Shown: in pieces, positions 1 to 41,147 of the stretch
How positions within the stretch are numbered: position 1 is the stretch's first letter
Layout: every line of letters begins with the position of its first letter
DNA from: Maribacter sp. PR1
GTDB lineage: Bacteria; Bacteroidota; Bacteroidia; Flavobacteriales; Flavobacteriaceae
DNA length: 64,000 bases
Direction of reading: 5' to 3'
NCBI RefSeq assembly: GCF_028464145.1
Contig: NZ_JAQPCG010000008.1
Coordinates: forward strand, 1 to 64,000
Position numbers and translations under genes: made by a program
The notes under the pieces: model-generated
The model's input: the letters and a program-made list of their open reading frames with translations, nothing else
Told to the model about the DNA's origin: nothing
Database searches by the model: none

Positions 1-1
1 A

Positions 2-97
2 CCGCAAGTGTATTTTGGGGGGTGGCGATTCGTTGAAAAACACGCGTTTCTCGTTATCCGACAACGATTCGGACCAAGTGTAGATTTAGTTCGATAA
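2..97 (+). CDS. possible 3' end of an unidentified gene (partial)
   Basis: One plus-strand frame stays open from the left edge for 31 codons and stops at TAA 95-97. The reading contains FGGWRFVEKHAFLVIRQRFG, a composition compatible with real protein. The fragment is too short to recognise a family, and random openness cannot be excluded. If real, it converges on the M23 peptidase gene. Bases 98-154 show nothing recognisable. Confidence 0.3.
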   Translation, partial: PQVYFGGWRFVEKHAFLVIRQRFGPSVDLVR

Positions 98-154
98 ACG
101 ACCGAGGGGTAAAAAACAGCTTACCGGAAAAAATGTGTTTTTAATCGGATATTA

Positions 155-838
155 CTACCTTATTTTCAATAACAGATTGGGGTCAATACAATTATTCCGA
201 TAGAAATCTAGCTGCTGCTTGGAACATACGCCAGGGTAATCCCCCCTACTGCCCTGCAAATCTTTTATTATTTGAAAATGAAGATGTGGCGCGTAGTTCA
301 CATTAATCTCGGGGTTGCCTAAAGTTGCTAAAACACTTTTGGCTTCAAACTTTTTTCCAATCGACAATCCTACTAGCGATTCCAAGCTCAAATGACCATA
401 AAGGGTGTAAAAGACAAAATCCTCCAACGAATGTTCCAAGATAATCGTTGGTCCATAATCCCCAACATTACTATTATTTTTAAAACTATGCACGACCCCG
501 TTGAGGGGAGTGAAGACTTCTGTTCCTTCCGTAGCCCAATAATCAATTCCTAAATGAATATTCCTAGGTTCCCCGAAATTCTGATTGAAACCAGACTTAT
601 CCTTATAAAGGTTTCTAACTTCCAAATACCCACCGTAGGCAACTTTCCCAGCCTTACTTTTTAAAATGTTATCAATATAGGACTGACAACTTTCCGGGTC
701 TGTAATATCGAAATCCTTCAATTCCGTATTATCAGCGGATAAATCTAAAGGAACATACGATTGAATGGGCAGGGTATTTTCAAGTATTGGAATTGACTGG
801 TCAGAAAAATTAGTCAGTATATGTTCAAGTGTATTCAT
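155..838 (-). CDS. M23-family (LytM-type) metallopeptidase
   Basis: The 227-residue protein carries the full zinc-peptidase signature of family M23: HxxxD at H95/D99, YGHLS around H149, and HLH at H185/H187. Members of this family cut peptide cross-links in peptidoglycan or act as regulators of such enzymes. The catalytic domain spans about residues 90-195. The first 90 residues match nothing I recognise. There is no obvious signal peptide or membrane segment at the N-terminus, which is odd for a cell-wall enzyme and suggests either a cytoplasmic role or a non-classical location. The gene stands alone, divergent from msrA. The family call is firm and the physiological role is open. Confidence 0.85.
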   Translation of the reverse strand: MNTLEHILTNFSDQSIPILENTLPIQSYVPLDLSADNTELKDFDITDPESCQSYIDNILKSKAGKVAYGGYLEVRNLYKDKSGFNQNFGEPRNIHLGIDYWATEGTEVFTPLNGVVHSFKNNSNVGDYGPTIILEHSLEDFVFYTLYGHLSLESLVGLSIGKKFEAKSVLATLGNPEINVNYAPHLHFQIIKDLQGSRGDYPGVCSKQQLDFYRNNCIDPNLLLKIR

Positions 839-941
839 TACCTAAAAATAAGGTGACATTTTCTAATCCTTAACATTTTTTAACCATTTATGGGGTAAGT
901 ACTTTGTAATTTACCTACTAATTGTGAAAAAGAAACAAAAG

Positions 942-1640
942 ATGAAACTATTTAAAATCTCCCTACTTTGCCTAACCGTGTTGATGGTTACCAGTTGTCA
1001 ATCCAAAACCAAGCAAAATAAAATTTCAGAAAACACCCCGAATACCATTGAGGAATCAAAGGATATTAAAAAATTGAGTCCTCAGGATTTAAGCAAATAT
1101 GAAACGGCGTACTTTGCCAGTGGATGTTTTTGGTGTGTAGAAGCTATTTTTGAAAGTGTGAAAGGGGTTAAAGAGGTCATTTCCGGATATGCAGGTGGTG
1201 AGGAGCAAAATCCTACTTACGAAATGGTGGGGCGCGGACAAACAACACACGCAGAAGCGGTAGAGGTCTATTATGACCCAGAAACTATTTCCTTTGTAGA
1301 ATTGGTCCAAGTATTTTTTGGATCGCACGACCCAACTACATTAAATCGTCAAGGCCCTGACCGGGGCACACAATATCGATCTATAGCCTTCTATAAAAAT
1401 GAGAGACAAAAGAAAATTATAGAAAGCTACATTCAAGCACTAAAGGATCAAGATGTATATAGTGGAGCAACGATAACCACTCAAGTAACTCCATTTACCA
1501 AGTTCTATGATGCGGAGGACTATCATCAAGACTATGAAAAGAAACATCCCAACAACTCCTATATAAGAAATGTATCCATTCCTAGATTAAATCGATTTAA
1601 AGAGAATTTTGGCGATTATCTAAAAGAGGGAGCGCATTAA
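942..1640 (+). CDS. msrA: peptide-methionine (S)-S-oxide reductase MsrA, lipoprotein
   Basis: MsrA reduces methionine-S-sulfoxide in oxidised proteins. The catalytic GCFWC motif is at residues 67-71 when counted from an upstream GTG at 924. The domain continues through GYAGGEEQNPTYE and YHQDYEKKHP, both typical of the family. The N-terminus is a lipoprotein signal ending in a VTSC lipobox, so the enzyme should sit in the envelope and repair oxidised periplasmic or outer-membrane proteins. I chose ATG 942 because it directly opens the signal peptide; GTG 924 in the same frame is an alternative. A linker of about 35 polar residues separates the lipid anchor from the catalytic domain. Confidence 0.93.
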   Translation: MKLFKISLLCLTVLMVTSCQSKTKQNKISENTPNTIEESKDIKKLSPQDLSKYETAYFASGCFWCVEAIFESVKGVKEVISGYAGGEEQNPTYEMVGRGQTTHAEAVEVYYDPETISFVELVQVFFGSHDPTTLNRQGPDRGTQYRSIAFYKNERQKKIIESYIQALKDQDVYSGATITTQVTPFTKFYDAEDYHQDYEKKHPNNSYIRNVSIPRLNRFKENFGDYLKEGAH

Positions 1641-1666
1641 GCATTTGGCTTAATTGTTATTTTAAT

Positions 1667-3510
1667 TTAGTATTTTAAAGGACGTAAACCCTTCGCCATG
1701 AAAAAATTACGTCCTTTTCTCTTTTTGGCCTGTCTCTGTATAATGGGCCTTCTTTCCTTCAATACGCCCGTACAGGAAAGCATGCAGGTCAAGAACATCC
1801 TAGGGAAGCTCCTGCTCTATAGCAAGAACGAAAGACCTGAGAAGACCTACTTGCATACGGACAAGGATTTCTATACCAACGGGGAGACCATATGGTTCAA
1901 GACCTATCTCGTGGACGGCATAGACCACAGGGCCAGTGATAAGAGCAAGGTCGTATATGTGGAACTGATAGATTCCGAAGGAAACATCCTGGAGCGAAGA
2001 AAACAGTTCGTAAGCGATCTGGGCGCAGAAGGAGAAATACAGCTGGAACAAAAACTGGCACAGGGAGAATACACCCTAAGGGCCTATACCAAATATATGC
2101 TCAACGAGGAAGAACCTGTATTCTTCGAGAAGAAAATCCCTATTTGGATGCAACAAATGACCAAGGGCGATGTCGCAGGGATTCCACAGAACAGCACTAA
2201 TTCAGGAGTAACGGACGTAGTCGACGAAAAGGAAGGGGTTTCGAAGACCAAGGTCCGATTCTTCCCCGAGGGCGGGCAGCTGGTCACCGGAATGAGCTCC
2301 AAACTGGGGCTTGAGGTCACCGATGGCCAAGGGAACGGACTGGCCTTGCAGGGAACAATCGTGGACCAGGACGGCAACGTGGCCGCGGATTTCAGAAGCG
2401 GGGAATTCGGCCTGGGCGTGGTCAACCTCAGACCACTCTCCGGAAAGACCTATTACGCACGGTTGGACGGAGAGGCAACCGATAGTGAATTTGAACTGCC
2501 CAGGGCCATGCCCGAAGGATATCTGCTCAACGTTACGGACCGGGGGGAACATATCCTGGTACAGGTGGCCACAAACCTGTCGGACGGACTGCAAGGAGCA
2601 CTTTTACTGGGCCACCTAAGGGGCGAGGTCTTCCTGAAACAGGTGGTTAACGGGTACGGGACAAAGGAACATGCAGTAAAAATATATCCGGATCAGCTTA
2701 AGGAAGGAGTGGCACAGTTCACCCTGTTCACGGCCAAGGGCGAGCCCGTGAGCGAACGGCTCTTCTTCGTGGAAAATCCCGATCAGCGCGCATCGCTTTC
2801 CATAGATACGGACAGGAAAAGCTACGGAACAAGGGACCGGGTACAAGTGGACCTGGCCCTTACAGATTCCCAGGGCAAGTCCTTGGAAGGTGAGTTCTCC
2901 ATGAGCGTGGTTTCCAAAAACGCCCTGTCCTCCGAATATTCCGGCGATATACGCAGTTGGCTCTTGCTCGACTCCGATGTGGGGGCGACCGTTCCCGATG
3001 CCGGGTATTTTTTCAGGAATGCCTCCAAGGACAGAAAACAGCTTTTGGACGCCCTGATGCTCACACACGGGTGGAGAAGGTTCAAATGGTCGCAACTTTT
3101 GGAGAAAAAGACAAGCAAGAAGCTTCGGTTCCCGCCCGAAAAGGGCATTACCATCAGCGGAAGGGCCGTTAACTATTACGATAATGAAAAATTCGGGAAA
3201 AGCCTGGCCAGCCTTACCCTGATGGGCGAGGACCTGGTCTACGACAAGGATTCCACCGACAACAACGGAAGGTTCGCCTTCGGGTCCTTTTTCTTCCAGG
3301 ACAGCGTGGACGCCATCCTGCAGGCCGAGGGTTTCGGTAAAAGACCGAAGGTCTTGGACATTTTACTGGACGCCCCCTACCCAGAAAATATGCCCGCACC
3401 CAGAAAAATACAATATCGGGAAACGCGCCACGTGGAACCCAACAACGACTACATGGCCAATGCCTACAGGCAAAAGGTGGCGGACTTTACCTTCGATCCC
3501 GACAAAGTGA
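1667..3510. repeat. 1844-bp near-identical direct repeat, copy A
   Basis: This segment is repeated at 4218-6061 with a constant offset of 2551 bases. It covers 31 bases of leader plus the first 604 codons of the gene. The only difference I found by eye is A1761 against G4312, which changes residue 22 from Asn to Asp. Shadow reading frames on both strands of the two copies also translate identically, which supports identity at silent positions. Identity stops abruptly after the shared GACAAAGTGA. The segment is visibly GC-richer than the flanking genes. Confidence 0.95.
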
Positions 3511-4202
3511 CCCTACTTGAAGAAGCGACCGTCACGGCCAAAAGACCAAATCCGAGAGATGTTAGAAACAGAATTTTAACCGAACAGATGGATGCTAAGA
3601 TGACAACTGGCCAGTTTTCAGACAGAGTTCATATGGACTCAATTCAGGGTACAGAAACACTTTCTGCTTTGGAATTACTTCGATATTCAAGATATTCTTT
3701 CAGAAGGGGAATTACTTCAGTAAATGCTGGGACAGGTGCGTTATATCTAGTAGATGGTGTAGTTGCAAGCCCAGATTTTATAAGCTCGATGAGAGCTAAT
3801 GAAATTCAATTTGTGGATATCGTCACTGGTCCAGATGCCACGTTATGGGGTGTCAGGGGTGCAGGCGGAGTTATCGCCTTCTATACCAAAAAGGGAATTT
3901 ATTTGGGGGATGAGACGAAGGATGTTCCCGGTATCATCAATACCAAAATTATTGGTTTCAACAAGGTAAGGGAATTCTATACCCCTAATTATTCAGTGGA
4001 CAGAAAAGAACATGAAAAGCCCGATTACCGCTCTACCCTGCTCTGGGAGCCCAACATAATGCTAAAAAAGGAAGGGGACAACAAACTAGAATTCTTTACC
4101 GGGGATAACCCCGGCAATTACCTGATCAAGGTAGAGGGACTGACCGTTAATGGAGTCCCGGTTAGCGAGACAATGGAATTGGAAGTGGATTCCTCTAACT
4201 AA
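1698..4202 (+). CDS. MG2 / TonB-plug domain protein, tandem copy A
   Basis: This 834-residue protein has a signal peptide (MKKLRPFLFLACLCIMGLLS). An MG2-like alpha-2-macroglobulin domain follows, with the hallmark KTYLHTDKDFYTNGETIWFK near residue 50, and then further beta-rich domains including FFPEGGQLVTG near residue 190. A TonB-dependent-receptor plug-like domain lies at about residues 615-735 (YLVDGV, EIQFVDIVTGPDATLWGVRG, GVIAFYTKK). No 22-strand receptor barrel follows, so this is not a transporter by itself. Such MG2-plug proteins are common in Bacteroidetes and their role is unknown to me. Residues 1-604 match copy B almost perfectly, whereas the plug differs. Codons 1-604 are GC-rich and the plug codons AT-rich, which points to a mosaic history. 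Confidence 0.85.
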   Translation: MKKLRPFLFLACLCIMGLLSFNTPVQESMQVKNILGKLLLYSKNERPEKTYLHTDKDFYTNGETIWFKTYLVDGIDHRASDKSKVVYVELIDSEGNILERRKQFVSDLGAEGEIQLEQKLAQGEYTLRAYTKYMLNEEEPVFFEKKIPIWMQQMTKGDVAGIPQNSTNSGVTDVVDEKEGVSKTKVRFFPEGGQLVTGMSSKLGLEVTDGQGNGLALQGTIVDQDGNVAADFRSGEFGLGVVNLRPLSGKTYYARLDGEATDSEFELPRAMPEGYLLNVTDRGEHILVQVATNLSDGLQGALLLGHLRGEVFLKQVVNGYGTKEHAVKIYPDQLKEGVAQFTLFTAKGEPVSERLFFVENPDQRASLSIDTDRKSYGTRDRVQVDLALTDSQGKSLEGEFSMSVVSKNALSSEYSGDIRSWLLLDSDVGATVPDAGYFFRNASKDRKQLLDALMLTHGWRRFKWSQLLEKKTSKKLRFPPEKGITISGRAVNYYDNEKFGKSLASLTLMGEDLVYDKDSTDNNGRFAFGSFFFQDSVDAILQAEGFGKRPKVLDILLDAPYPENMPAPRKIQYRETRHVEPNNDYMANAYRQKVADFTFDPDKVTLLEEATVTAKRPNPRDVRNRILTEQMDAKMTTGQFSDRVHMDSIQGTETLSALELLRYSRYSFRRGITSVNAGTGALYLVDGVVASPDFISSMRANEIQFVDIVTGPDATLWGVRGAGGVIAFYTKKGIYLGDETKDVPGIINTKIIGFNKVREFYTPNYSVDRKEHEKPDYRSTLLWEPNIMLKKEGDNKLEFFTGDNPGNYLIKVEGLTVNGVPVSETMELEVDSSN

Positions 4203-4217
4203 TAAATTGTAAAAAAA

Positions 4218-6061
4218 TTAGTATTTTAAAGGACGTAAACCCTTCGCCATGAAAAAATTACGTCCTTTTCTCTTTTTGGCCTGTCTCTGTATAATGGGCC
4301 TTCTTTCCTTCGATACGCCCGTACAGGAAAGCATGCAGGTCAAGAACATCCTAGGGAAGCTCCTGCTCTATAGCAAGAACGAAAGACCTGAGAAGACCTA
4401 CTTGCATACGGACAAGGATTTCTATACCAACGGGGAGACCATATGGTTCAAGACCTATCTCGTGGACGGCATAGACCACAGGGCCAGTGATAAGAGCAAG
4501 GTCGTATATGTGGAACTGATAGATTCCGAAGGAAACATCCTGGAGCGAAGAAAACAGTTCGTAAGCGATCTGGGCGCAGAAGGAGAAATACAGCTGGAAC
4601 AAAAACTGGCACAGGGAGAATACACCCTAAGGGCCTATACCAAATATATGCTCAACGAGGAAGAACCTGTATTCTTCGAGAAGAAAATCCCTATTTGGAT
4701 GCAACAAATGACCAAGGGCGATGTCGCAGGGATTCCACAGAACAGCACTAATTCAGGAGTAACGGACGTAGTCGACGAAAAGGAAGGGGTTTCGAAGACC
4801 AAGGTCCGATTCTTCCCCGAGGGCGGGCAGCTGGTCACCGGAATGAGCTCCAAACTGGGGCTTGAGGTCACCGATGGCCAAGGGAACGGACTGGCCTTGC
4901 AGGGAACAATCGTGGACCAGGACGGCAACGTGGCCGCGGATTTCAGAAGCGGGGAATTCGGCCTGGGCGTGGTCAACCTCAGACCACTCTCCGGAAAGAC
5001 CTATTACGCACGGTTGGACGGAGAGGCAACCGATAGTGAATTTGAACTGCCCAGGGCCATGCCCGAAGGATATCTGCTCAACGTTACGGACCGGGGGGAA
5101 CATATCCTGGTACAGGTGGCCACAAACCTGTCGGACGGACTGCAAGGAGCACTTTTACTGGGCCACCTAAGGGGCGAGGTCTTCCTGAAACAGGTGGTTA
5201 ACGGGTACGGGACAAAGGAACATGCAGTAAAAATATATCCGGATCAGCTTAAGGAAGGAGTGGCACAGTTCACCCTGTTCACGGCCAAGGGCGAGCCCGT
5301 GAGCGAACGGCTCTTCTTCGTGGAAAATCCCGATCAGCGCGCATCGCTTTCCATAGATACGGACAGGAAAAGCTACGGAACAAGGGACCGGGTACAAGTG
5401 GACCTGGCCCTTACAGATTCCCAGGGCAAGTCCTTGGAAGGTGAGTTCTCCATGAGCGTGGTTTCCAAAAACGCCCTGTCCTCCGAATATTCCGGCGATA
5501 TACGCAGTTGGCTCTTGCTCGACTCCGATGTGGGGGCGACCGTTCCCGATGCCGGGTATTTTTTCAGGAATGCCTCCAAGGACAGAAAACAGCTTTTGGA
5601 CGCCCTGATGCTCACACACGGGTGGAGAAGGTTCAAATGGTCGCAACTTTTGGAGAAAAAGACAAGCAAGAAGCTTCGGTTCCCGCCCGAAAAGGGCATT
5701 ACCATCAGCGGAAGGGCCGTTAACTATTACGATAATGAAAAATTCGGGAAAAGCCTGGCCAGCCTTACCCTGATGGGCGAGGACCTGGTCTACGACAAGG
5801 ATTCCACCGACAACAACGGAAGGTTCGCCTTCGGGTCCTTTTTCTTCCAGGACAGCGTGGACGCCATCCTGCAGGCCGAGGGTTTCGGTAAAAGACCGAA
5901 GGTCTTGGACATTTTACTGGACGCCCCCTACCCAGAAAATATGCCCGCACCCAGAAAAATACAATATCGGGAAACGCGCCACGTGGAACCCAACAACGAC
6001 TACATGGCCAATGCCTACAGGCAAAAGGTGGCGGACTTTACCTTCGATCCCGACAAAGTGA
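4218..6061. repeat. 1844-bp near-identical direct repeat, copy B
   Basis: This is the second copy of the segment at 1667-3510, and it starts immediately after the first gene ends. It includes the same 31-base leader ahead of the ATG, so any translation signal there is duplicated too. Only one difference was seen in 1844 bases. Both junctions are sharp: TTAG begins the identity and GACAAAGTGA ends it. Confidence 0.95.
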
Positions 6062-6762
6062 ACTTACTCGACGAGGCCAAGGTTAGAGGGAAGAAAGTGA
6101 ATATAAGTATTTTACGAAATCATGAGATTACTAGACAAACTGATTACGCGCAAATCACCTCAGGTCCATTTACCTACCGTATTCATGTAGACTCAATTCA
6201 AGGTACCGAAACACTTTCTGCTTTGGAATTACTTCGATATTCAAGATTTTCGGCTGTAAGCGGTAGAACTTCAATATACGCAAGTAACGAACCACTATAT
6301 CTTATTGATTTTATACCCGTTAGCAAAAGTACGTTAAATGGATTTAGGGCAAATGAAATTATGTTTGTGGATGTCGTTAGAGGTCCGGGTGCTTCAATAT
6401 TTGGCTCAAGGGGTGCTAATGGCATTATTGCGTTTTATACCAAACGACCAATCTTATTTGAAAATAAAATTTTTCAAAAGAAAATACCTGATATTATCGA
6501 CACCAAGATTATAGGCTTTAACAAGGTAAGGGAATTCTATGTCCCAAACTATTCTGTGGACAAAAAGGAGCACGAAAAACCGGACTACCGCTCCACGCTG
6601 TTCTGGCAACCCGATATTCAATTGAAAAAGGACAGGGCAACGAAGCTCGATTTCTTTACCGGCGATAACCCGGGCAATTACCTAATAAAGGTAGAGGGAC
6701 TGGCCGATGATGGAATCCCGGTTAACCAAACGATGGAATTGGAAGTGGGTTCTTCTAATTAA
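4249..6762 (+). CDS. MG2 / TonB-plug domain protein, tandem copy B
   Basis: This 837-residue paralogue lies 46 bases downstream of copy A in the same direction. Signal peptide, MG2-like domain and following beta domains (residues 1-604) equal copy A except Asp22. The plug region differs strongly (YLIDFI, EIMFVDVVRGPGASIFGSRG, GIIAFYTKR). A block inside it, DSIQGTETLSALELLRYSR, is retained in both, and the C-terminal 90 residues are similar but not identical (GFNKVREFY, NYSVDKKEHEKPDYRSTL, FFTGDNPGNYLIKVEGL). A barrel is again absent. The contrast between an unchanged scaffold and a changed plug suggests gene conversion of the 5' part or exchange of the plug cassette. A strong terminator follows. 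Confidence 0.85.
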   Translation: MKKLRPFLFLACLCIMGLLSFDTPVQESMQVKNILGKLLLYSKNERPEKTYLHTDKDFYTNGETIWFKTYLVDGIDHRASDKSKVVYVELIDSEGNILERRKQFVSDLGAEGEIQLEQKLAQGEYTLRAYTKYMLNEEEPVFFEKKIPIWMQQMTKGDVAGIPQNSTNSGVTDVVDEKEGVSKTKVRFFPEGGQLVTGMSSKLGLEVTDGQGNGLALQGTIVDQDGNVAADFRSGEFGLGVVNLRPLSGKTYYARLDGEATDSEFELPRAMPEGYLLNVTDRGEHILVQVATNLSDGLQGALLLGHLRGEVFLKQVVNGYGTKEHAVKIYPDQLKEGVAQFTLFTAKGEPVSERLFFVENPDQRASLSIDTDRKSYGTRDRVQVDLALTDSQGKSLEGEFSMSVVSKNALSSEYSGDIRSWLLLDSDVGATVPDAGYFFRNASKDRKQLLDALMLTHGWRRFKWSQLLEKKTSKKLRFPPEKGITISGRAVNYYDNEKFGKSLASLTLMGEDLVYDKDSTDNNGRFAFGSFFFQDSVDAILQAEGFGKRPKVLDILLDAPYPENMPAPRKIQYRETRHVEPNNDYMANAYRQKVADFTFDPDKVNLLDEAKVRGKKVNISILRNHEITRQTDYAQITSGPFTYRIHVDSIQGTETLSALELLRYSRFSAVSGRTSIYASNEPLYLIDFIPVSKSTLNGFRANEIMFVDVVRGPGASIFGSRGANGIIAFYTKRPILFENKIFQKKIPDIIDTKIIGFNKVREFYVPNYSVDKKEHEKPDYRSTLFWQPDIQLKKDRATKLDFFTGDNPGNYLIKVEGLADDGIPVNQTMELEVGSSN

Positions 6763-6786
6763 AAACCCTTAAAATTTACTATCTTC

Positions 6787-6813
6787 AAGCGTCTTTAACA
6801 AGACGCTTTTTTT
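6787..6813 (+). terminator. rho-independent terminator after the tandem plug genes
   Basis: A perfect 9-base stem (AAGCGTCTT / AAGACGCTT) with a TAAC loop is followed directly by a run of T. It closes the transcription unit of the two plug genes and separates it from the DUF1080 gene. Confidence 0.9.
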
Positions 6814-6833
6814 ATAAAACCAATTTAACAACA

Positions 6834-8213
6834 ATGACAAAACAAAAATTAAAGTTTTCCGTAGTATTTATTTGCGCCTTCCTTTTTATATGCTGCAAAC
6901 AGGAACCTACCGATGACACTCCATGGGTATCCCTTTTTGATGGGGAATCTTTAAACGGATGGACTCAAAAAGGAGGAAAGGCAAATTATACGATTCGGGA
7001 TAATAGTGTGGTAGGGAGTACAGTCCACAACACCCCAAACTCCTTTATGACCACGGACAAAATGTACGGGGATTTTATTATGGAATTGGATTATATGGTC
7101 GATTCCACCATGAATTCGGGCATACAAATCCGCAGCAACAGCTATCCACATTATATGGACGGACGAGTTCATGGCTATCAAATTGAAATAGATCCTTCGG
7201 ATAGGGCCTGGAGCGCTGGTATTTATGATGAGGCCAGAAGGGGATGGCTAAATCCTATGACCGAAAACCCCGAAGCCCAAAAGGCATTTAAACAAAACGA
7301 TTGGAATCATTATAGAGTTGAAGCCATTGGGGATACCTTAAAAACATGGATTAATGGGGTACCTGCCGCTCATCTTATCGATGATAGAACATCTGAAGGG
7401 TTTATAGCCCTGCAAGTCCATAGTATTGGGGAAGACCAACAAGAAGGAACTGAAATTATTTGGAAAAATATCAAAATATTGACCGACAGTCTTTCGAAGT
7501 ATTCCAAGGAAACTCCGGTCCCCCCAATTATAACCAAAAACGCCTTGGGTGTCGATGAAGCAAAAAACGGGTGGCAAATGCTTTGGAACGGAGAATCGAC
7601 CGAAGGATGGCGTGGAGCCCGTTTGGATGAATTCCCCGAAAAAGGCTGGGAAATAAACGATGGTATCCTTACGGTACTTTCATCAGGAGGGGAAGAGTCC
7701 GCAGCGGGAGGTGACATTGTCACCAAAGAACTCTATGGCGATTTTGAACTTAAATTGGATTTTAAAATTACAGAAGGGGCCAATAGTGGGATTAAATATT
7801 ATGTAGATACGGACCTCAACAAGGGACCAGGTTCTTCCATTGGTTTGGAATATCAGATTTTAGATGATGAACGGCATCCTGATGCCAAATTGGGCAATCA
7901 TGAAGGCAGTAGGACCGTAGCTTCGCTCTACGATCTAATAAAAGCGGACGAAGACAAACCCATCAACCCCATTGGCGAATGGAATACCGCACATATCATT
8001 TCTAAGGATGGGCATGTAGAACATTGGTTGAATGGTATGAAGGTGTTGGAGTATGAACGGGGCAGCGACGAATACAAAAAATTAGTGTCCGAAAGTAAAT
8101 ATGTAACCTGGCCAAATTTTGGAGAATCGGAAACCGGTCATATTCTATTACAGGACCATGGCGATAGAGTTTCCTTTAAAAACATAAAAATTAAACCAAT
8201 CACAAAAGAATAG
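6834..8213 (+). CDS. tandem DUF1080 (3-keto-disaccharide/glycoside hydrolase) lipoprotein
   Basis: This 459-residue lipoprotein (lipobox near Cys20/21) contains two DUF1080 jelly-roll domains, at about residues 30-215 and 245-455. Each opens with the family's WxxLFDGxSLxGW-type strand (WVSLFDGESLNGW; WQMLWNGESTEGW) and carries the GDFIMELDY/GDFELKLDF and NSGI strands. DUF1080 proteins are known as 3-keto-disaccharide hydrolases that split glycosides previously oxidised at C3. The next gene, an exported Gfo/Idh/MocA dehydrogenase starting 4 bases after this stop, could supply that oxidation or a later step, so an operon acting on a sugar is likely. The substrate cannot be read from sequence. 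Family call secure, reaction inferred from family and context. Confidence 0.88.
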   Translation: MTKQKLKFSVVFICAFLFICCKQEPTDDTPWVSLFDGESLNGWTQKGGKANYTIRDNSVVGSTVHNTPNSFMTTDKMYGDFIMELDYMVDSTMNSGIQIRSNSYPHYMDGRVHGYQIEIDPSDRAWSAGIYDEARRGWLNPMTENPEAQKAFKQNDWNHYRVEAIGDTLKTWINGVPAAHLIDDRTSEGFIALQVHSIGEDQQEGTEIIWKNIKILTDSLSKYSKETPVPPIITKNALGVDEAKNGWQMLWNGESTEGWRGARLDEFPEKGWEINDGILTVLSSGGEESAAGGDIVTKELYGDFELKLDFKITEGANSGIKYYVDTDLNKGPGSSIGLEYQILDDERHPDAKLGNHEGSRTVASLYDLIKADEDKPINPIGEWNTAHIISKDGHVEHWLNGMKVLEYERGSDEYKKLVSESKYVTWPNFGESETGHILLQDHGDRVSFKNIKIKPITKE

Positions 8214-8216
8214 GCA

Positions 8217-9545
8217 ATGACAACAAGAAGAAACTTTATAAAAAAAACAACGGCAGGTACCGCTGCAGTGACCCTAGGAGGGTTAGTATTACCTTCTTCG
8301 TCCTATGGTAATATATTGGGTGCCAATGATCAAATTAATTGTGCGGTAATAGGTGTAAGAAGCAGGGCAAAGGCACACGTAAAAGCCATAAACGAAGATC
8401 CAAATGCAAAAATTTTATACAGTTGCGATGTAGATGATGTTATCTTGGAAGAGCACAATGCTTGGTGTCAAGAAAATATTGGGTACATCCCAAAAGTTGA
8501 AAAAGACTTTAGGAAAATGTTAGAGGATAAAAAGGTGGATGCCGTTTTTATTGCCACCCCTGAACACTGGCATGCCCCAATGGCAATTTTGGCCTTACAG
8601 GCAGGAAAGCATGTTTATGTGGAAAAACCCTGTAGCCATAATCCACATGAGAATGAACTATTGGTGGCGGCACAAAAAAAATATGGTAAGAAGGTGCAGA
8701 TGGGAAATCAGCAGCGCTCGGCTTTTACCTCCATAAGCGCTATAAAGGATATTAGGGAAGGTGTAATTGGCGATGTCTATAAAGGCGAAGCCTATTATTC
8801 GAACAACCGCGGCTCTATTGGTAATGGTAAGGTGATAGAGGTGCCGAAGACATTGGATTGGGAATTATGGCAAGGACCTGCCCTAAGGGAAAAGTATAAA
8901 GACAACGTACATCCTTACAACTGGCATTGGTTCAGAAATTGGGGTACCGGTGAAATTCATAATAATGGCACCCATGAAATCGATATTTGTCGTTGGGCAC
9001 TTGGAGTGGACCTACCCAATAGCGTGACCTCCTTTGGCGGTAAATACACCTACGATGATGATTGGGAATTCGTGGACAACCAGCAGGTCACCTATACTTT
9101 TGACAATGATAAGTTTATTACTTGGACCGGTCATAGCAGAGGTGTTCTCAAGCCAAAAAGACCCGGTAGGGGTATCACCATTTATGGTAGTGAAGGCTCT
9201 ATTATGTTAGATCGGAATTTTTATCAATTGTACGACCTTCAAGGCAACCTCATAAAGGAAGAAAAAGAGGGTGGTTCCAGTGAAACGACCAACACTAGAG
9301 GGGAAGGATCACTGGATGTTAACCATGTAGGGAACTTCTTTAAAGCCATAAGAGCGGATGAAAGTCTACATGCGGATATTAAGGATGCAAGTATTTCCAC
9401 GATGCTATGTCATTTGGGAAATATGGCTCAAGATGCTGGTGAGACCCTAAAAATAGACAACTCCACTGGAAAAGTATTGAACAATGAAATGGCCATGAAT
9501 TTCTGGAAAAGAGAATATGCCCCAGGTTGGGAGCCCAAGTTATAG
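8217..9545 (+). CDS. Tat-exported Gfo/Idh/MocA family oxidoreductase
   Basis: The 442-residue protein begins TTRRNFIKKT, a twin-arginine signal, and the export region runs to about residue 33. A Rossmann fold follows (CAVIGVRSR, residues 42-50), then the family motif EKP at 136-138 and the substrate-domain run WHWFRNWGTGEIHNNGTHEID. Family members oxidise or reduce sugar hydroxyls with tightly bound NAD(P). Tat export implies folding with cofactor in the cytoplasm and activity in the periplasm. The gene starts 4 bases after the DUF1080 gene and is probably cotranscribed, fitting C3 oxidation of a glycoside. The exact substrate is unknown. Confidence 0.9.
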   Translation: MTTRRNFIKKTTAGTAAVTLGGLVLPSSSYGNILGANDQINCAVIGVRSRAKAHVKAINEDPNAKILYSCDVDDVILEEHNAWCQENIGYIPKVEKDFRKMLEDKKVDAVFIATPEHWHAPMAILALQAGKHVYVEKPCSHNPHENELLVAAQKKYGKKVQMGNQQRSAFTSISAIKDIREGVIGDVYKGEAYYSNNRGSIGNGKVIEVPKTLDWELWQGPALREKYKDNVHPYNWHWFRNWGTGEIHNNGTHEIDICRWALGVDLPNSVTSFGGKYTYDDDWEFVDNQQVTYTFDNDKFITWTGHSRGVLKPKRPGRGITIYGSEGSIMLDRNFYQLYDLQGNLIKEEKEGGSSETTNTRGEGSLDVNHVGNFFKAIRADESLHADIKDASISTMLCHLGNMAQDAGETLKIDNSTGKVLNNEMAMNFWKREYAPGWEPKL

Positions 9546-9602
9546 CAGAAATAAACTTTTTATAAAAAAGGTCATTTTTTGGATGGATTGTTTATTATAC
9601 TA

Positions 9603-9627
9603 AAATTCCTACAACGAATAGGAATTT
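9603..9627. other. perfect inverted repeat in the intergenic region
   Basis: AAATTCCTA and TAGGAATTT flank a 7-base loop between the oxidoreductase and the CBM9-like gene. No clean T run follows (CTGTATATTT), so it could be a weak terminator, an operator or a processing site. Confidence 0.5.
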
Positions 9628-9665
9628 CTGTATATTTAATTGAATAAACCCCAAATTATTGACTT

Positions 9666-10400
9666 ATGAGATGTATACTGGCCCTAATAATGGTGTTGGT
9701 GTCCTTTTCTTGTAACAGGCATGAAACGAAAAAGGACACCAACATTATTGAAGTTTCGCATACAGACGAACCACCAACCATTGATGGAGAATCCAAAGAA
9801 ACACTTTGGAAGCTCAATGAATGGCTACCACTGGACCAAAATTGGATGGGCGGCCCCTATGAACATGCTGATTTTAATGGCAGGTACAAGTTGACATGGA
9901 ACAGGGATGCGCTATATGTATTGTTAGAAATTACGGACGACACGCTTTTAGATCGAACCAAAGATCCCCTCAAACTTTATTGGAACGATGACTGCGTAGA
10001 GGTTTTTATTGATGAGGACAATTCGGGAGGGCTGCATCAGTATAACCATAATGCCTTTGCATATCATGTCGCTTTAGATGGTAATGTTGTTGATTTAGCA
10101 CCGGACAAAAATCCAAAACTTTATAATGGGCATATCACCTCCGAACACACTACAGTGGATAACTTAACCACTTGGGAGTTGGCCATACGGGTTTATGATG
10201 ACACCTATCAAGAAGGACAAAAAAACAATCCTGAGGAATTAAAACAAGAGAAAAGAATAGGTTTTGCCTTGGCCTATTGTGACAATGATCATAGTACGGA
10301 AAGGGAAAATTTTATTGGATCTGTTTTCGTTCCAGGAGAGGACAAAAATCAAGGATGGATAAATGCAGATATCTTTGGGACTTTAGTATTAAAAAAATAG
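9666..10400 (+). CDS. CBM9-like carbohydrate-binding lipoprotein
   Basis: This 244-residue protein has a lipoprotein signal with Cys16 (VSFSCN). The rest reads as a family 9-like carbohydrate-binding fold: DEPPTIDGESKETLWKL near the start, then LTWNRDALYVLLEITDD and YWNDDCVEVFIDEDNSGG, the strands typical of the CBM9-like sugar-binding group. It lies 120 bases downstream of the sugar-oxidation genes in the same direction and probably belongs to the same function, holding substrate at the cell surface or in the periplasm. It ends one base before the convergent stop of the next gene. Confidence 0.8.
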   Translation: MRCILALIMVLVSFSCNRHETKKDTNIIEVSHTDEPPTIDGESKETLWKLNEWLPLDQNWMGGPYEHADFNGRYKLTWNRDALYVLLEITDDTLLDRTKDPLKLYWNDDCVEVFIDEDNSGGLHQYNHNAFAYHVALDGNVVDLAPDKNPKLYNGHITSEHTTVDNLTTWELAIRVYDDTYQEGQKNNPEELKQEKRIGFALAYCDNDHSTERENFIGSVFVPGEDKNQGWINADIFGTLVLKK

Positions 10401-10401
10401 A

Positions 10402-11832
10402 CTACTCAACGGTTACTTCGCTAAAATCAGAAGTGATAACAATAGAGCGATTATCATTTTCGGCAATACTATGTCCCTTAAGTATTTTAGTGTTCCCATT
10501 TTTTGTCTCTTTCAATTTTAAATTTTTGGGCAAAACCATATCAGAGGCTGTTCCCTTGATATAAATATTAGTGGCTGTAGCAGGTAACTTAAAATTAAGT
10601 TCCGCGTTTTTTAAGGAGACATCCAGCTCCTCAAAATCATTGGCAATTGATAAAATTCTCAAGGGGCCAAAATCATTCTTTATAAATGCCTTTTTCAGTA
10701 ATTTATCTATGGTCACATGAGAAGAATTGGCCTGTAACTGTAAGGTGTGAACCTCGCTTAACGCTATATCTTTGGAATAGTTGGTCTTTAATTGACCATA
10801 GTTCCAGTTGCGTACGTTTACTGGCGAATACGATACGGACACTTGGGTTTCATCCCCATCTATGGTCGTAGCCCAAAGGCTTGAATGCGACAAAGTCGCA
10901 TTCAAGTTCCTAGTATTTTCAGCCAATTTAACCTCTCCATGTCTTACATTCATCTTTATCTTGGTAGACTTGGGCATCTTAATCTTGATGGTTTTTTTAA
11001 TCTTATAGTTCTTGTTTTCCCCGTCTGTAGAGAAATAAAATATACTGGGACCTTCATGCTTCTCCCTGAGCTCCATCATCTCACGTCTTGCTTCTCTTTG
11101 GGCTTCCCTGGCTTCTTGTTGTACTTCCCTGATCTCTATCCTTTGCTCTACTATTTCAGCTCTTTTTTTCTCCATTTCCTCTCTTCGTTTATCCTGGGCC
11201 TCAAGACGTTTTTCCATCTCTTTACCCCGCTTTTCCATACGTTCGGCCCATTCTTCCAATCGTTTTTGATGCTTTTCATCAAAACTCTCTTTAAATTCCT
11301 TTTGCCATTTTTTCATGTATTCCTCACCATCCTTTTGATAGGCCTTATAATCAAACTTAAAAGCTTCTGTTTGCGGTAAGGGTGGCATTTCAACTATTTC
11401 AGGAAAAGGGGCAATCTCTGGAATTTCAACCACAAAAGGAGCGATTTCGGGAATTTCAATATCCAAATCCCTAAATTCAAACTCAACATCCTGGGGTCCA
11501 AAAAGGCCAAATCTCTTTGAAGTAGATGTGATTTCAATTCTTGAGCTATTACCCAAAATTTTAATAGGGTCGCTTTCAAAGTAGTTTTCTGACTCTTCTT
11601 TTTCGGCCCCTTCCAACTCCACGGTAGCGACTATCTCTACCACATTCTTATTCCATGTTTCAAACTCAATATCCGCATAACTGGTATTGATGTCCAAAAC
11701 GGCATCCTTATCCACATTAAAGCTTTCCTTGTAGGTCTTACTTTCCTTCTGGCCAAAGACGCCGAACGTGCTGATTAAAAATCCTAAAACAATGATGAGT
11801 TGTTTAGATACTATTTTCGGTGATCTGTTCAT
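10402..11832 (-). CDS. exported DUF4097-like protein with charged coiled-coil insert
   Basis: This 476-residue protein has an N-terminal signal peptide ending in GVFGQ. It starts with a beta-rich segment (LDINTSYADIEFETWNKN, resembling DUF4097-type putative adhesins) and ends with another beta-rich segment of the same style (ATLSHSSLWAT, LQANSSHVTIDKL). Between them, at about residues 165-270, is an extremely charged helical stretch rich in E, R and K (EEWAERMEKRGKEMEKR). It is the last gene of an operon with an ECF sigma factor and a putative anti-sigma protein and overlaps the latter by 29 bases. In Flavobacteria this order usually means an envelope-stress effector or target gene. The function is not known. 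Confidence 0.65.
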   Translation of the reverse strand: MNRSPKIVSKQLIIVLGFLISTFGVFGQKESKTYKESFNVDKDAVLDINTSYADIEFETWNKNVVEIVATVELEGAEKEESENYFESDPIKILGNSSRIEITSTSKRFGLFGPQDVEFEFRDLDIEIPEIAPFVVEIPEIAPFPEIVEMPPLPQTEAFKFDYKAYQKDGEEYMKKWQKEFKESFDEKHQKRLEEWAERMEKRGKEMEKRLEAQDKRREEMEKKRAEIVEQRIEIREVQQEAREAQREARREMMELREKHEGPSIFYFSTDGENKNYKIKKTIKIKMPKSTKIKMNVRHGEVKLAENTRNLNATLSHSSLWATTIDGDETQVSVSYSPVNVRNWNYGQLKTNYSKDIALSEVHTLQLQANSSHVTIDKLLKKAFIKNDFGPLRILSIANDFEELDVSLKNAELNFKLPATATNIYIKGTASDMVLPKNLKLKETKNGNTKILKGHSIAENDNRSIVITSDFSEVTVE

Positions 11833-12391
11833 TTTTTGATGATTTTAATTGATTTAACTTCTTTTTTAACTTCTGTAATAACTGTAATCTTAATTGTAGG
11901 TTTTCTATAAGGGCCGATATTGTTTGATCATTGGGGCCCAATTCGTTCAATTCACTGTTTAGATTCTCATATTCAGAATTGAGTTCGGTCAAACGTTCCA
12001 TAAAACTGTCAACAAGCTCCTTATTCGCTGCAGATACATCCAACTTTGAAAGCTCCATATTGATATTGGCCACATAATAGTTTTCAACTTTCTTCAGATC
12101 AGGGGAAAGGTCACCAAAAGAAAATGTATTGTCTTTTTCAATAGGTCCCCCTTTATCCACTATGGTAGTAGGAATATCCTCCGTATTAAAAAATTGTAAG
12201 TAGCCAATCATTCCCAAACCTAAAAGAACCACAATTGAGGCAGCAACTTTCCAGATATTCCAAAGCGATTTTTTTTCTACTGGCAGTGCCTCATCCAGCT
12301 TGGATAGAAATCGGGCTTCATGTCCTTTCTTAAGTTCAAAACTTTGTTCCTCCCGCTCCTTTTTAAATAATTTTATAAGATCTTGTTTCAT
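11804..12391 (-). CDS. putative membrane anti-sigma factor
   Basis: The 195-residue protein has a cytoplasmic N-terminus of about 45 charged residues. A single membrane helix (IWKVAASIVVLLGLGMIGYL, about residues 45-65) is followed by an extracytoplasmic part that ends in a leucine-rich helix (ENLQLRLQLLQKLKKKLNQL). This one-helix topology, directly downstream of an ECF sigma gene, is that of an anti-sigma factor. No zinc-binding ZAS motif is evident. The assignment therefore rests on topology and position. Its end overlaps the next gene by 29 bases, suggesting translational coupling. Confidence 0.65.
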   Translation of the reverse strand: MKQDLIKLFKKEREEQSFELKKGHEARFLSKLDEALPVEKKSLWNIWKVAASIVVLLGLGMIGYLQFFNTEDIPTTIVDKGGPIEKDNTFSFGDLSPDLKKVENYYVANINMELSKLDVSAANKELVDSFMERLTELNSEYENLNSELNELGPNDQTISALIENLQLRLQLLQKLKKKLNQLKSSKNEQITENSI

Positions 12392-12451: not shown

Positions 12452-13003
12452 TTAAGAATTGTTGCGCCTCATTTCATATTTTTTCGATTGCAACAATTCC
12501 TTCAATTGTCCTTTTCCCCTTAATAATCGTGTTCTACATGCCGTTTCGGTTATATCCAATACCTGAGATATCTCCTTATGGTCAAAACCTTCCACTAAAT
12601 ACATCATAACTACATATTTATATTTTTCGGATAACTTCACAATGGCCTCTTTAACATCGTCCATCCCAATTCCTTCCTCAATGGTCCAGTCATCATGCTC
12701 TACGGGACTCATATAACTCTCGTCCAAGGCTATAGTCTGTTCCTTTTTGGATTTTAAAAAATCTATGCATTTATTCACCACTATTCGCTTTAGCCAAGCA
12801 CCAAAAGTTACTTCCCCCTTAAACTGATGTATTTTCTGAAAGGCCTTTACAAAGGCCTCTTGCAATACATCTTCCGCGTCGTCGGCATTCTTCAAAAAAC
12901 GCATGGCGACACAGTACATTCCGTCACAATACTGCCGGTACAGTTTTAGCTGTGCGGAACGGTCATTTGCCTTACATTTTTCTACAATGTCTAATTGAAA
13001 CAT
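12452..13003 (-). CDS. ECF-type RNA polymerase sigma-70 factor
   Basis: The 183-residue protein shows sigma region 2 (MRFLKNADDAEDVLQEAFVK, with the conserved DAEDVLQEAF core) and region 4 (KYVVMMYLVEGFDHKEISQV and the recognition helix ETACRTRLLRGKGQL). The length is normal for the family. It heads a three-gene minus-strand operon with a putative anti-sigma factor and an exported coiled-coil protein, so it probably drives an envelope-related regulon including its own operon. The divergent aldose epimerase starts about 107 bases away. Confidence 0.93.
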   Translation of the reverse strand: MFQLDIVEKCKANDRSAQLKLYRQYCDGMYCVAMRFLKNADDAEDVLQEAFVKAFQKIHQFKGEVTFGAWLKRIVVNKCIDFLKSKKEQTIALDESYMSPVEHDDWTIEEGIGMDDVKEAIVKLSEKYKYVVMMYLVEGFDHKEISQVLDITETACRTRLLRGKGQLKELLQSKKYEMRRNNS

Positions 13004-19400: not shown

Positions 19401-20330
19401 TTATTGGCCCAGTAGTGCCATACCTTGTTTCGCTTGATAGAATGTTAACCCTATCCATGAAGCGTAGGTCAAAGCGAATAAAGTTACAACGATAATCTGT
19501 TTACGATTGGAGAACCTCCATTTTTTCGATAACCAAATGGCGAAGAACGGAATAACCTGAATACCGTGCAATCCATAAAAATGAGCTATGCGGAGGTCTC
19601 CACCAATAGTGCTCCAGTTGACCAATGGGAGCCCCTCTCCCCCATCTGAGACACCAATATTATGACCCATTTGTGCTATCATTTGACCTCCCACCCAGCT
19701 ACCAAAAAATACAACCAGCCAGCCCATTAATATGGCCCATTGTACCGATTTTGTGGTCTTTAATTTTAAACGTACCGTATCTATAATAAATAAGACCATC
19801 GTTAATACGTTAATACCAACAAAGACACCCATTAACATAAATAGTATAGCATCAAAATTAGTAGCGATATTATAATGACTTTGTACGCCCCTAGAACCTT
19901 GGTATAGGATGATGAGAAACTCCAATAACAAGGACCACATAGTTATATGGTTGATAAGATTCTTTTTCCTTTTGGAGTATGGATATTTGGAAATCAAATA
20001 CCCCACGGTTAGTAAGTAGATTGATATGGAAATAGAAAATTTTAATGGCTTTAACCAAACGCTAACTCCCATTAAGGTTCTTTCGTCAATGAACAGACCA
20101 ATTAAGCATCCTATCCCCAATATTGCGATTACCATGGCTACCCAGAATAATATCGGACTTTCTTTTTTAACTTTCGTTAATAGTTTTCCGATGGTTTTTT
20201 GAAAGTTTCCCCAAAGCTTTAATTCGCTGTTTGATGAGTGATTGTTTTCAATTAATGTTTGTGTATAAGAGTTCATATTATTTTCATTTAAATTATTTGC
20301 TGTTAATCCAGAAAGGTTTTCGTAATTCAT
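19401..20330 (-). CDS. polytopic membrane protein of unknown function in LytS/LytTR operon
   Basis: The protein is about 309 residues from ATG 20330, with roughly seven hydrophobic helices after a polar N-terminal stretch of about 55 residues. I recognise no domain. ATG 20330 overlaps the TGA stop of the upstream gene as ATGA (20330-20327), a coupling arrangement that decides the start. A longer frame back to 20411 is less likely. It lies 15 bases before the kinase gene, so it is a candidate partner or input for the kinase. Function unknown. Confidence 0.7.
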   Translation of the reverse strand: MNYENLSGLTANNLNENNMNSYTQTLIENNHSSNSELKLWGNFQKTIGKLLTKVKKESPILFWVAMVIAILGIGCLIGLFIDERTLMGVSVWLKPLKFSISISIYLLTVGYLISKYPYSKRKKNLINHITMWSLLLEFLIILYQGSRGVQSHYNIATNFDAILFMLMGVFVGINVLTMVLFIIDTVRLKLKTTKSVQWAILMGWLVVFFGSWVGGQMIAQMGHNIGVSDGGEGLPLVNWSTIGGDLRIAHFYGLHGIQVIPFFAIWLSKKWRFSNRKQIIVVTLFALTYASWIGLTFYQAKQGMALLGQ

Positions 20331-20749
20331 CCAATTTTGTTTTTTATGGTTTTGAGGGTCATGAACAAAAGAAAACCTAAGGGCCCAAACATAAAGGTGA
20401 AAAAAAGACAAGGTGCCATAAGCGCCTTATGAATACCTAGTTCCTTGTTTTTGCTTACCATCCACATACCTACTAGAAGATCAAATGCGAGATAATGAAT
20501 CCAACCAGCCAGAACTGCATTTTCCTTAGTAAACAACTCCTTAACAGATGCAAGACTTCCAAAGTCCATAAGTCCATTATCCATCATCGATTGAATGATG
20601 TAAAAAATATAAATTGCAGAGAGCACTATAGGGATTACCTTGAAATCGATCAAGTATCTGGTCAATTTCCACTTCGGCAAGAATATCATCAATAGCCACA
20701 TGGGCATAACGATGAAGTTTGCGAACGAGAACATAGTAGTTGGTGTCAT
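20327..20749 (-). CDS. ABA4-like (DUF4281) membrane protein
   Basis: From ATG 20749 the protein is about 140 residues with four membrane helices. The sequence FSFANFIVMPMWLLMIFLPK at the start and the run WIHYLAFDLLVGMWMV followed by LFFTFMFGPLGFLLF match the ABA4-like family, named for a plant neoxanthin-synthesis protein; the bacterial role is unsettled. The frame reaches back to 20794, but 20749 begins where family similarity begins. It is the first gene of the operon with the membrane protein, LytS kinase and LytTR regulator. Confidence 0.8.
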   Translation of the reverse strand: MTPTTMFSFANFIVMPMWLLMIFLPKWKLTRYLIDFKVIPIVLSAIYIFYIIQSMMDNGLMDFGSLASVKELFTKENAVLAGWIHYLAFDLLVGMWMVSKNKELGIHKALMAPCLFFTFMFGPLGFLLFMTLKTIKNKIG

Positions 20750-20820
20750 TTTAAAGTTTTTTAGAATATAATGATGTCCCAAAAATGTGGACAAACCATC
20801 ACTTTAAAAATGACTTTATG

Positions 20821-20921: not shown

Positions 20922-22583
20922 TCACTGTTTTAAATGCACCAAGTGCATTTTATTGACAACTTTATATCTAGTATTGGGGTTGAGAAATTTTCCCTGTAAC
21001 CTCGTTATTCTAAATTGGTCCACGGTGTACTGTTGATCCCAGTCCAAAGGAGATTCCCTTATTTTTTCCAATTCTTCAGCATTGACATAGACCCAAACAT
21101 CTTTCTTGTTCCTAATCGCTGTCATGTTACTGATTTGCACTGGATACTTATTATAAAAATCAAGGGCCCAAGTATATTGTTCTCCAATCTTGTAAATTTT
21201 TTCTACTGGAACATTGTTCTGTTTCACCAATTTAGACATATTGGAGCCACCCTGATATTTGAGTAGATTGGGATAGAAATGAAGATTCAATACTGCGTTT
21301 AAAAGAAGTGAGGTACAAACGGAAACCGTAATCAAACGTATATAGCTATTCTCGGATTTTAAAGTGAAATAAACAATGACTAGACTTGCGAGAATCAATA
21401 AAAGTGGGATAAACACACCATCGAACTTAAAAACAAAAAAACAGATTAAAACAGACGATACAAATACTAAGGACAAAATAAAATATTGGGCACCCATCAA
21501 ATACTTGGTCGTCTTTTTCTTTTCAAACCGATATAGATCATACATATAGGAAGCCGTAAGTACGGAAAATAATGGAATAGTAACGTTTAGGTAATGAGGA
21601 AGTTTAAACTGTGCAAAGCTTATAAGAACAAAGACCAAGGTAATTCCTCCTAAGGTCAGAAACTCATATTTTGGATTGTAAGTAAACTTTAATTTTATGA
21701 AGGTTTTTGCTTTACACCAAAATGCCGTCAAGGCTAAAATGGTCCAAGGAAGAAAGACCCACAAAAAAGTATGAAAAAAGAAAAAATAATCGCTGCTGTT
21801 CTTACCGATACCCTCCCCGCTCATACGTTCAAAGCTCTGTTCCCAAAAAATAAAAAAGATACCACTACGATTGTCCCGACCTCGAATTATTTTTTCAGGA
21901 TGCATATCAAACTGTAAGTAATACGCATATAACATCGGTGCGATAGTGAATGCGAATACCGTTAAGGCCAAAATTACTTTCCAGCTTATAAACCGTTTCC
22001 ATTTTCTGGTATACGCCAAATGACATAATAAAGGTAATCCTATAACCACCAATGCAATCTGACCCTTAGTAGAAAAAGCCATGCCAGCCCCAAATGCTCC
22101 CAACAGTATCGCGACCACACTGCCCTTTTCAATATACCTTGCCAATTGCCAAATTGCGAAAATGGTAAACCCTGTCAACACAGCATCGGTACGCACATCG
22201 ATTGCACCTAAAACAATGGTTTGAGCAGTCATGAAGATTAAAGCCGCTAATTTACCAGTATGCTGATTATACAAAAGCTTTCCAAGCCCAAAACAACTAT
22301 AGGCCCCCAAAAGTGTTGCCAAAATTCCTGGAATGCGGTATGCCCAATCGTGAATCCCAAAAATTTTATAAGAAAGGGCAGCGAGCCAATAATGCATATG
22401 TGGTTTGTCTAAATACTCATTAGGACCCTTAAATAAATTGATGAAATCATTTTCATTGACCATGCGCATGGCCATCACGGCAAACTGAGCAGAATCGTTT
22501 TCAAATAGCGTCACGAAAGTACCGGCGATATACACCAAAACTATGAGAACCACTAAAAACCAATACCTTAGGTTGGATATCAT
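20922..22583 (-). CDS. ArnT-like glycosyltransferase, GT39/GT83 membrane type
   Basis: From ATG 22583 the protein has about 553 residues with many membrane helices. It carries the loop-1 acidic residues expected of GT-C enzymes (FENDSAQFAVMAMRM) and the family-typical DKPHMHYWLAALSYKIFG. Enzymes of this class move a sugar from a polyprenyl phosphate to lipid A, protein or another acceptor on the outer face of the inner membrane. ATG 22583 overlaps the TGA of the PAP2 gene as ATGA. The frame extends to 22724, but that part runs antiparallel to nothing functional and lacks membrane character, so I discard it. Confidence 0.88.
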   Translation of the reverse strand: MISNLRYWFLVVLIVLVYIAGTFVTLFENDSAQFAVMAMRMVNENDFINLFKGPNEYLDKPHMHYWLAALSYKIFGIHDWAYRIPGILATLLGAYSCFGLGKLLYNQHTGKLAALIFMTAQTIVLGAIDVRTDAVLTGFTIFAIWQLARYIEKGSVVAILLGAFGAGMAFSTKGQIALVVIGLPLLCHLAYTRKWKRFISWKVILALTVFAFTIAPMLYAYYLQFDMHPEKIIRGRDNRSGIFFIFWEQSFERMSGEGIGKNSSDYFFFFHTFLWVFLPWTILALTAFWCKAKTFIKLKFTYNPKYEFLTLGGITLVFVLISFAQFKLPHYLNVTIPLFSVLTASYMYDLYRFEKKKTTKYLMGAQYFILSLVFVSSVLICFFVFKFDGVFIPLLLILASLVIVYFTLKSENSYIRLITVSVCTSLLLNAVLNLHFYPNLLKYQGGSNMSKLVKQNNVPVEKIYKIGEQYTWALDFYNKYPVQISNMTAIRNKKDVWVYVNAEELEKIRESPLDWDQQYTVDQFRITRLQGKFLNPNTRYKVVNKMHLVHLKQ

Positions 22584-39943: not shown

Positions 39944-39995
39944 TTCTTGTTTCGTTGAATTTTACTAAAAATACAGAATACACTAATCATATCGC

Positions 39996-40028: not shown

Positions 40029-40053
40029 ACTTTATTATATAATGATTTAAAGT

Positions 40054-41138: not shown

Positions 41139-41147
41139 AACTATAAT

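What the first reader, a model, noticed from the sequence alone, without database searches (positions are those of the whole stretch)
1667..6061. Tandem genes with a 1844-bp identical first part
Two adjacent genes share 31 bases of leader and 604 codons with a single difference (A1761/G4312), then switch abruptly to diverged plug-domain sequence. If both parts had aged equally after duplication, the first part should carry many silent changes. Recent gene conversion of the 5' part, or swapping of the 3' plug cassette onto a fixed scaffold, explains this best. The outcome is an unchanged exported MG2-type body carrying two alternative plug domains.
Basis: partly seen in the sequence, partly recalled or inferred. 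Interest (0 to 1): 0.8.

Follow-up and report, generated by a model that had tools for sequence, protein, structure and literature searches.

The report
Twin genes with swappable plug ends
A marine bacterium carries two side-by-side copies of a probably exported protein whose first three quarters are virtually identical while the last quarter, a fast-changing plug-like part, differs, apparently because DNA exchange between relatives has reshuffled this gene.

Summary
The 604 shared codons have 0 silent differences; the other 230 aligned codons have 98.5. Relatives G007 and G002 have one copy between the same neighbours.

The new part: the gene is a mosaic exchanged between species. Against G007, 39 neighbouring genes have a median silent difference of 0.72 (minimum 0.36); copy 1 has 0.255 and its plug core (3675-4088) only 0.053. 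Copy 2's plug core sits at the ordinary species distance (0.70); outside this genome its best match found is 61%. Trees of body, plug and C-terminal end disagree. Amino-acid change peaks in the plug in most related pairs examined.

Best reading: two plug alleles in tandem on one recently homogenised body, in a barrel-less MG2-plus-plug protein. Not general: 9 of 10 other tandem pairs lack the pattern, and in the tenth (G003) the plug differs mainly by amino-acid change. Biochemical role unknown; structure prediction failed.

The parts
1667..1697 (+). leader shared by both copies (copy 1)
   Evidence: identical to 4218-4248; nearly identical in G007 and G002
1698..4202 (+). copy 1 (p1), 834-aa MG2 + plug protein
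   Evidence: ORF; MG2 residues 50-131, plug residues 669-725
1698..3510 (+). shared body of copy 1 (604 codons plus one base)
   Evidence: one difference to 4249-6061; silent difference to G007 0.229
3511..4199 (+). unshared 3' part of copy 1: linker, plug, C-terminal end
   Evidence: 62% protein identity to copy 2 over 230 codons
3675..4088 (+). plug-core tract (residues 660-797) with few silent differences to G007; limits chosen by eye
   Evidence: 5.0 of 94.5 silent sites differ; longest run of unchanged codons 80, reached in 0 of 20000 shuffles
3678..3797 (+). hypervariable plug segment, residues 661-700
   Evidence: high nonsynonymous difference in several pairs
4203..4217 (+). junction between copy 1 and the second leader
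   Evidence: looks like post-stop sequence joined to the leader at a short imperfect match (read by eye)
4218..4248 (+). leader (copy 2)
4249..6762 (+). copy 2 (p2), 837-aa MG2 + plug protein
4249..6061 (+). shared body of copy 2
6062..6759 (+). unshared 3' part of copy 2
   Evidence: plug-core silent difference 0.692 to p1 and 0.698 to G007; best match outside this genome among 36 genus genomes 61%
6763..6971 (+). spacer and first 46 codons of the next gene, closer to G007 than average
   Evidence: 0.222 in the first 46 codons, 0.312 in the first 60; spacer alignment

Best explanation
These are two plug alleles of one locus standing in tandem, with one recently homogenised body. The locus encodes an MG2-plus-plug protein without a barrel, probably exported. 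Shown: the body is virtually identical in both copies; body and plug core are far closer to another species than the neighbouring genes are; the plug is usually the part with most amino-acid change among relatives. Inferred: copy 2's plug is the resident allele (ordinary species distance) and copy 1's plug was traded by homologous recombination with conserved body and C-terminal sequence as arms; the tandem formed by unequal crossing over at a short match between post-stop sequence and leader, either between two alleles that already shared the body, or by insertion followed by conversion of the body. The cell thus keeps two plug faces on one scaffold. What the plug face contacts (a separate barrel, a ligand, a phage or a bacteriocin) is not known.
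For: Silent differences 0/404.7 against 98.5/154.7. Single copy between the same neighbours in G007 and G002; in pieces or with broken frame in G013 and L036. Silent divergence to G007: copy 1 0.255 and copy 2 0.351, against 39 other genes with median 0.722 and minimum 0.359; to G002: 0.538 and 0.582, against 33 others with minimum 0.592. Blocks p1/G007 0.229, 0.721, 0.053, 0.735; in the last block p1/p2 0.318 and G007/G002 0.25. Body tree pairs p1 with p2 (1.000), plug tree pairs p1 with G007 (0.954), C-end tree (37 codons) pairs p1 with p2 (0.908). In G003's own tandem pair residues 661-700 have nonsynonymous 0.33 and silent 0.43, against 0.02 and 0.23 in the body.
Against: No second strain of this species was available, so the allelic polymorphism is not seen directly. 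No donor of copy 2's plug was found. Of 10 tandem pairs in 9 other genomes only G003's has a conserved body with a divergent plug, and there the silent difference of the plug segment is only slightly raised (0.30 against about 0.23), so it is not a cassette swap of the kind seen here; in G094 (two pairs), G053 and G067 the plug is better conserved than every body segment. Low-divergence patches also occur in other genes of the window, so exchange is not unique to this gene. The p1/p2 silent-run test in the 3' part is weak (p 0.026). For p1/G007 the highest amino-acid change lies in the C-terminal window, not in the plug.
Confidence: 0.62

Rival explanations
1. Old tandem paralogues in this lineage whose 5' parts were recently homogenised by gene conversion inside the genome; no import is needed for the pair, and relatives with one copy lost theirs.
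For: The plug distance p1/p2 is old (0.692); a near-identical patch at 3648-3697 and a C-terminal end closer than background (0.318) could be earlier conversions between the two.
Against: If the pair predates the splits, separate losses in G007, G002 and G013 are needed; it does not by itself explain why copy 1's plug core is 0.053 from another species.
Confidence: 0.25
2. A very recent tandem duplication in which copy 2 then received a foreign 3' part.
For: One difference in 1844 bp; the junction can be read as a simple duplication joint.
Against: Needs two very recent events; copy 2's plug groups with copy 1 and G007 (1.000) at ordinary species distance, so it need not be foreign.
Confidence: 0.08
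3. Assembly artefact: two alleles, or a collapsed repeat, written as a tandem.
For: Draft of 23 contigs; no reads; the exact stretch 1762-3510 (1749 bp) is longer than a short read; the contig end shares 147 bp with contig C6.
Against: The junction 4203-4217 is expected only where a copy is followed by another leader; the A/G difference separates the two bodies close to unique sequence.
Confidence: 0.05

Closest known systems
Plug domain of SusC/RagA TonB-dependent transporters
   Same: A profile of 11 homologues matches RagA/SusC plugs (best E 7.4e-8); 10 of the 11 hit the Pfam Plug model at E 0.01 or better.
   Different: No barrel in the protein (834-837 aa); the plug lies near the C-terminus, behind an MG2 body.
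Neisseria HmbR haemoglobin receptor variation (PMC3068627, abstract seen)
   Same: An outer-membrane receptor diversified by horizontal exchange plus mutation, with a minority of codons under diversifying selection.
   Different: There the variable regions are loops of the receptor, among strains of one species; here a plug-like domain varies and two versions stand in tandem.
DNA-inversion control of surface proteins in Bacteroides (PMC4747536, listing with start of abstract)
   Same: Variation of cell-surface proteins, in the same phylum.
   Different: No inverted repeat of 30 bp or more was found in window 1-12000; here a direct tandem and homologous exchange.

Membership tests
TonB-dependent transporter (SusC/RagA) | plug domain | tested here: met
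   profile match, 10 of 11 homologues; singly these two proteins stay below the Pfam cut-off
TonB-dependent transporter (SusC/RagA) | 22-strand outer-membrane barrel after the plug (feature recalled) | tested here: not met
   about 110 residues follow the plug match and no barrel model was hit; the SusC model matches only about positions 143-206 of 981, far below its cut-off
Alpha-2-macroglobulin-like proteins | MG2 domain | tested here: met
   residues 50-131, above the Pfam cut-off in both
Alpha-2-macroglobulin-like proteins | the other A2M domains, such as bait and thioester regions (recalled) | tested here: not met
   no further A2M model in either protein at E 0.1
Tandem paralogues under gene conversion | a block of near identity between otherwise diverged tandem copies | tested here: met
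Tandem paralogues under gene conversion | the identity arises inside the genome rather than by import | tested here: inconclusive
   exchange between species is supported; the intragenomic step cannot be separated without strains
Invertible shufflon | inverted repeats | tested here: not met
   0 inverted pairs (minimum 30 bp, seed 14) in 1-12000
Invertible shufflon | neighbouring recombinase | not tested
   the window was not scanned for recombinases

The most novel reading that the evidence does not exclude
MG2-plug proteins are separable recognition modules: a fixed scaffold presents a hypervariable plug face, to a barrel encoded elsewhere or to an outside attacker, and the bacteria diversify it by trading plug cassettes between species and keeping two faces in tandem. 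The plug would then be the diversified part, as variable loops are in known surface antigens.
Probability: 0.2. Interest if true: 0.75.

Novelty: new variant of a known kind. Interest (0 to 1): 0.52.

Why it matters
Plug domains are known as the gates inside outer-membrane transporters. Here a plug belongs to a barrel-less protein, is its fastest-changing part in most related pairs examined, and was traded between species. That points to a recognition role, gives a defined locus in which to measure exchange between species in a marine genus, and names a segment (residues 661-700) to test for a binding partner. The literature searches made here listed no paper holding both the MG2-domain and the plug or TonB terms.

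Tried and rejected
Rejected: equal ageing of both parts; general silent-site constraint as the cause of low divergence (in alignment columns 561-600 copy 1 is 0.043 from G007 but 0.993 from G002); plug replacement as a rule for tandem pairs.

Led nowhere: AlphaFold model of copy 2 with four sequences (mean pLDDT 37), so no fold search was run. Literature: none of 12 listed papers held 'MG2 domain'; two searches listed none; one search listed two and twelve papers, of which I opened one abstract (PMC3068627); one search listed ten papers, none with Maribacter, so it says nothing about that genus; PMC12578637 was searched for 'plug', 'macroglobulin' and 'MG2': 0 occurrences. All this covers only the held open-licence library. 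The genome-contig scan gave 2 loci. No other strain of the species was held.

Rows dropped: one search used 44 chosen ORFs; four ORFs of 150 aa or more (20327-20794, 22580-23149, 57374-57877, 61199-61765) were left out, and 942-1640 was given a later start than. The window control used 38 genes; the ORF at 12452-13003 was not in it. In one search the distant third ORF of G262 and the non-adjacent pair of G260 were not counted; single-copy stretches of G410, G412, G256, G154, G367 and G361 were not used further. Family searches scored only the top candidates per genome (7, 2), so tandem arrays are under-counted. G013 was left out of codon comparisons of this gene. Block limits and the segment 661-700 were chosen after seeing the data. 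The sliding windows started at residues 21-781 and so leave out both ends of the protein.

Full report
OBSERVATION. Two adjacent genes, 1698-4202 (834 aa) and 4249-6762 (837 aa), read in the same direction. Bases 1667-3510 and 4218-6061 are identical except for A1761/G4312, and the break at 3511/6062 is abrupt. The 604 shared codons have 0.0 silent differences in 404.7 sites; the other 230 aligned codons have 98.5 in 154.7. The two parts cannot have the same age. The held assembly shows no third close copy.

WHAT THE PROTEIN IS. The shared body carries an MG2 domain (residues 50-131). The unshared part carries a TonB plug-like domain: below the Pfam cut-off for each protein alone (23.0 and 18.4 against 23.9 bits), but a profile of 11 homologues matches the plugs of RagA and SusC in solved structures (best 7.4e-8), and 10 of 11 members hit the Plug model. 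About 110 residues follow, so there is no room for a barrel. A hydrophobic N-terminus suggests export (read by eye, not tested). No NCBIfam model reaches its cut-off.

THE LOCUS IN RELATIVES. The genus is Maribacter: the two loci found in named genomes bear that name, and a 12.8-kb stretch of G017, which the tool places in the same genus as the window, is contained in one of them. 14 of 36 genus genomes, this one included, have a homologue at E 1e-60 or better; among the listed places only this genome and G003 have two copies side by side. G007 and G002 have one copy between the same neighbours, a methionine sulfoxide reductase gene and a gene with a 3-keto-disaccharide hydrolase domain; L036 (broken frame) and G013 (in pieces) have the same neighbours; in G019 and G005 one copy lies a few genes away.

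EXCHANGE BETWEEN SPECIES. Of 42 other window ORFs compared with G007, 39 gave a value: median silent difference 0.722, lowest 0.359. Copy 1 gives 0.255 and copy 2 0.351. For G002, 33 others: median 0.793, lowest 0.592; the copies give 0.538 and 0.582. Inside copy 1 the difference from G007 changes in blocks: residues 1-604 0.229; 605-659 0.721; 660-797 0.053 (5.0 of 94.5 sites); 798-834 0.735 (limits chosen by eye). In the 3' part the longest run of unchanged codons is 80 of 197, reached in 0 of 20000 shuffles. As a control, of 1057 sixty-codon windows in 38 other genes 5 fall below 0.1 (four in 19401-20411, one in 20922-22724) and 13 below 0.25; copy 1 has windows of 0.0. Exchange thus occurs elsewhere in the window too, but this gene is the extreme. 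The direction of exchange is unknown.

WHICH PLUG IS THE RESIDENT. In the plug core copy 2 differs from G007 by 0.698 and from copy 1 by 0.692, about the ordinary distance between these two species. No genome searched holds a close copy of copy 2's plug: best outside this genome 61% in the 36 genus genomes and 48% in the 397 family genomes. In the plug tree it groups with copy 1 and G007 (1.000), which are sisters (0.954); in the body tree the two copies are sisters (1.000); in the tree of the last 37 codons they are sisters again (0.908) and G007 pairs with G002 (0.758). The simplest inference is that copy 2's plug is resident, copy 1's plug was traded recently, and the bodies were homogenised last.

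HOW THE TANDEM AROSE. The 15 bases after copy 1 resemble the post-stop sequence of the relatives, joined to the leader at a short imperfect match (by eye). This fits unequal crossing over. Whether it took place between two alleles that already shared the body, or was followed by conversion of the body, cannot be told without other strains.

THE PLUG AS VARIABLE PART. In sliding 40-codon windows starting at residues 21-781, the highest nonsynonymous difference starts between 611 and 671 in 7 of 8 pairs; G009/G023 peaks at 551. With fixed windows over the whole protein, 9 pairs were listed (p1/p2 not among them): the highest value is in 641-680 or 681-720 in 6 of 9, one of them tied with window 1-40; p1/G007 peaks at 801, G023/G002b and G023/G017 at 561. 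The pairs overlap and are not independent. In G003's tandem pair residues 661-700 have nonsynonymous 0.33 and silent 0.43, against 0.02 and 0.23 in the body (Fisher p 2e-10); the contrast is weaker in G019/G005 (p 0.005) and G005b/G019b (p 0.003) and not significant in G017/G002b (p 0.12). No segment has a ratio above 1, so relaxed constraint is not excluded and positive selection is not shown.

RESULTS AGAINST GENERALITY. Of 10 tandem pairs in 9 other genomes only G003's has a well-conserved body with a divergent plug, and its silent difference in the plug is only slightly raised. G416 and G262 have lower plug identity on already diverged bodies; G251 and G110 show no clear contrast; G223 is diverged throughout; in G094 (two pairs), G053 and G067 the plug is better conserved than every body segment.

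LIMITS. One genome per species, no reads, no usable structure (mean pLDDT 37), and family searches that scored only the best few candidates per genome. The contact made by the plug face is unknown.

VERDICT. That recombination diversifies surface proteins is known; the new element is a barrel-less MG2-plug protein whose plug is the traded, variable part, caught with two versions on one body.

Noticed in passing
window 19401-20411 and the start of the gene at 20922-22724 (minus strand): Another patch of very low silent divergence to G007 (0.049-0.077 in sixty-codon windows), in a gene without a Pfam match and at the start of a PMT_2 gene; possibly a further exchange tract.
   Followed up: partly
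window 1-147: The contig start also occurs, in reverse orientation, at the end of contig C6 (99%, 147 bp); C6 holds the next-best homologue at 39444-41678.
   Followed up: no
L036 6001-8536: The homologue in Maribacter halichondriae Hal144 has a broken frame near the linker before the plug.
   Followed up: no
L039 5748-8279 (G013): The homologue at the same place in G013 (81% complete) is found in three pieces with stops inside.
   Followed up: no
L081, L084, L085 (G094, G053, G067): Tandem arrays in other genera in which the plug is better conserved than the body, with members of 1206-1340 aa.
   Followed up: partly
window 9666-10400, 30183-32411 and 41148-41828: ORFs for which no match (E 1e-30, 60% of length) was found in the fetched neighbouring stretches of G007, G002 or G013: a CBM9 gene, a DUF5916 gene and one ORF not scanned for domains.
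   Followed up: no
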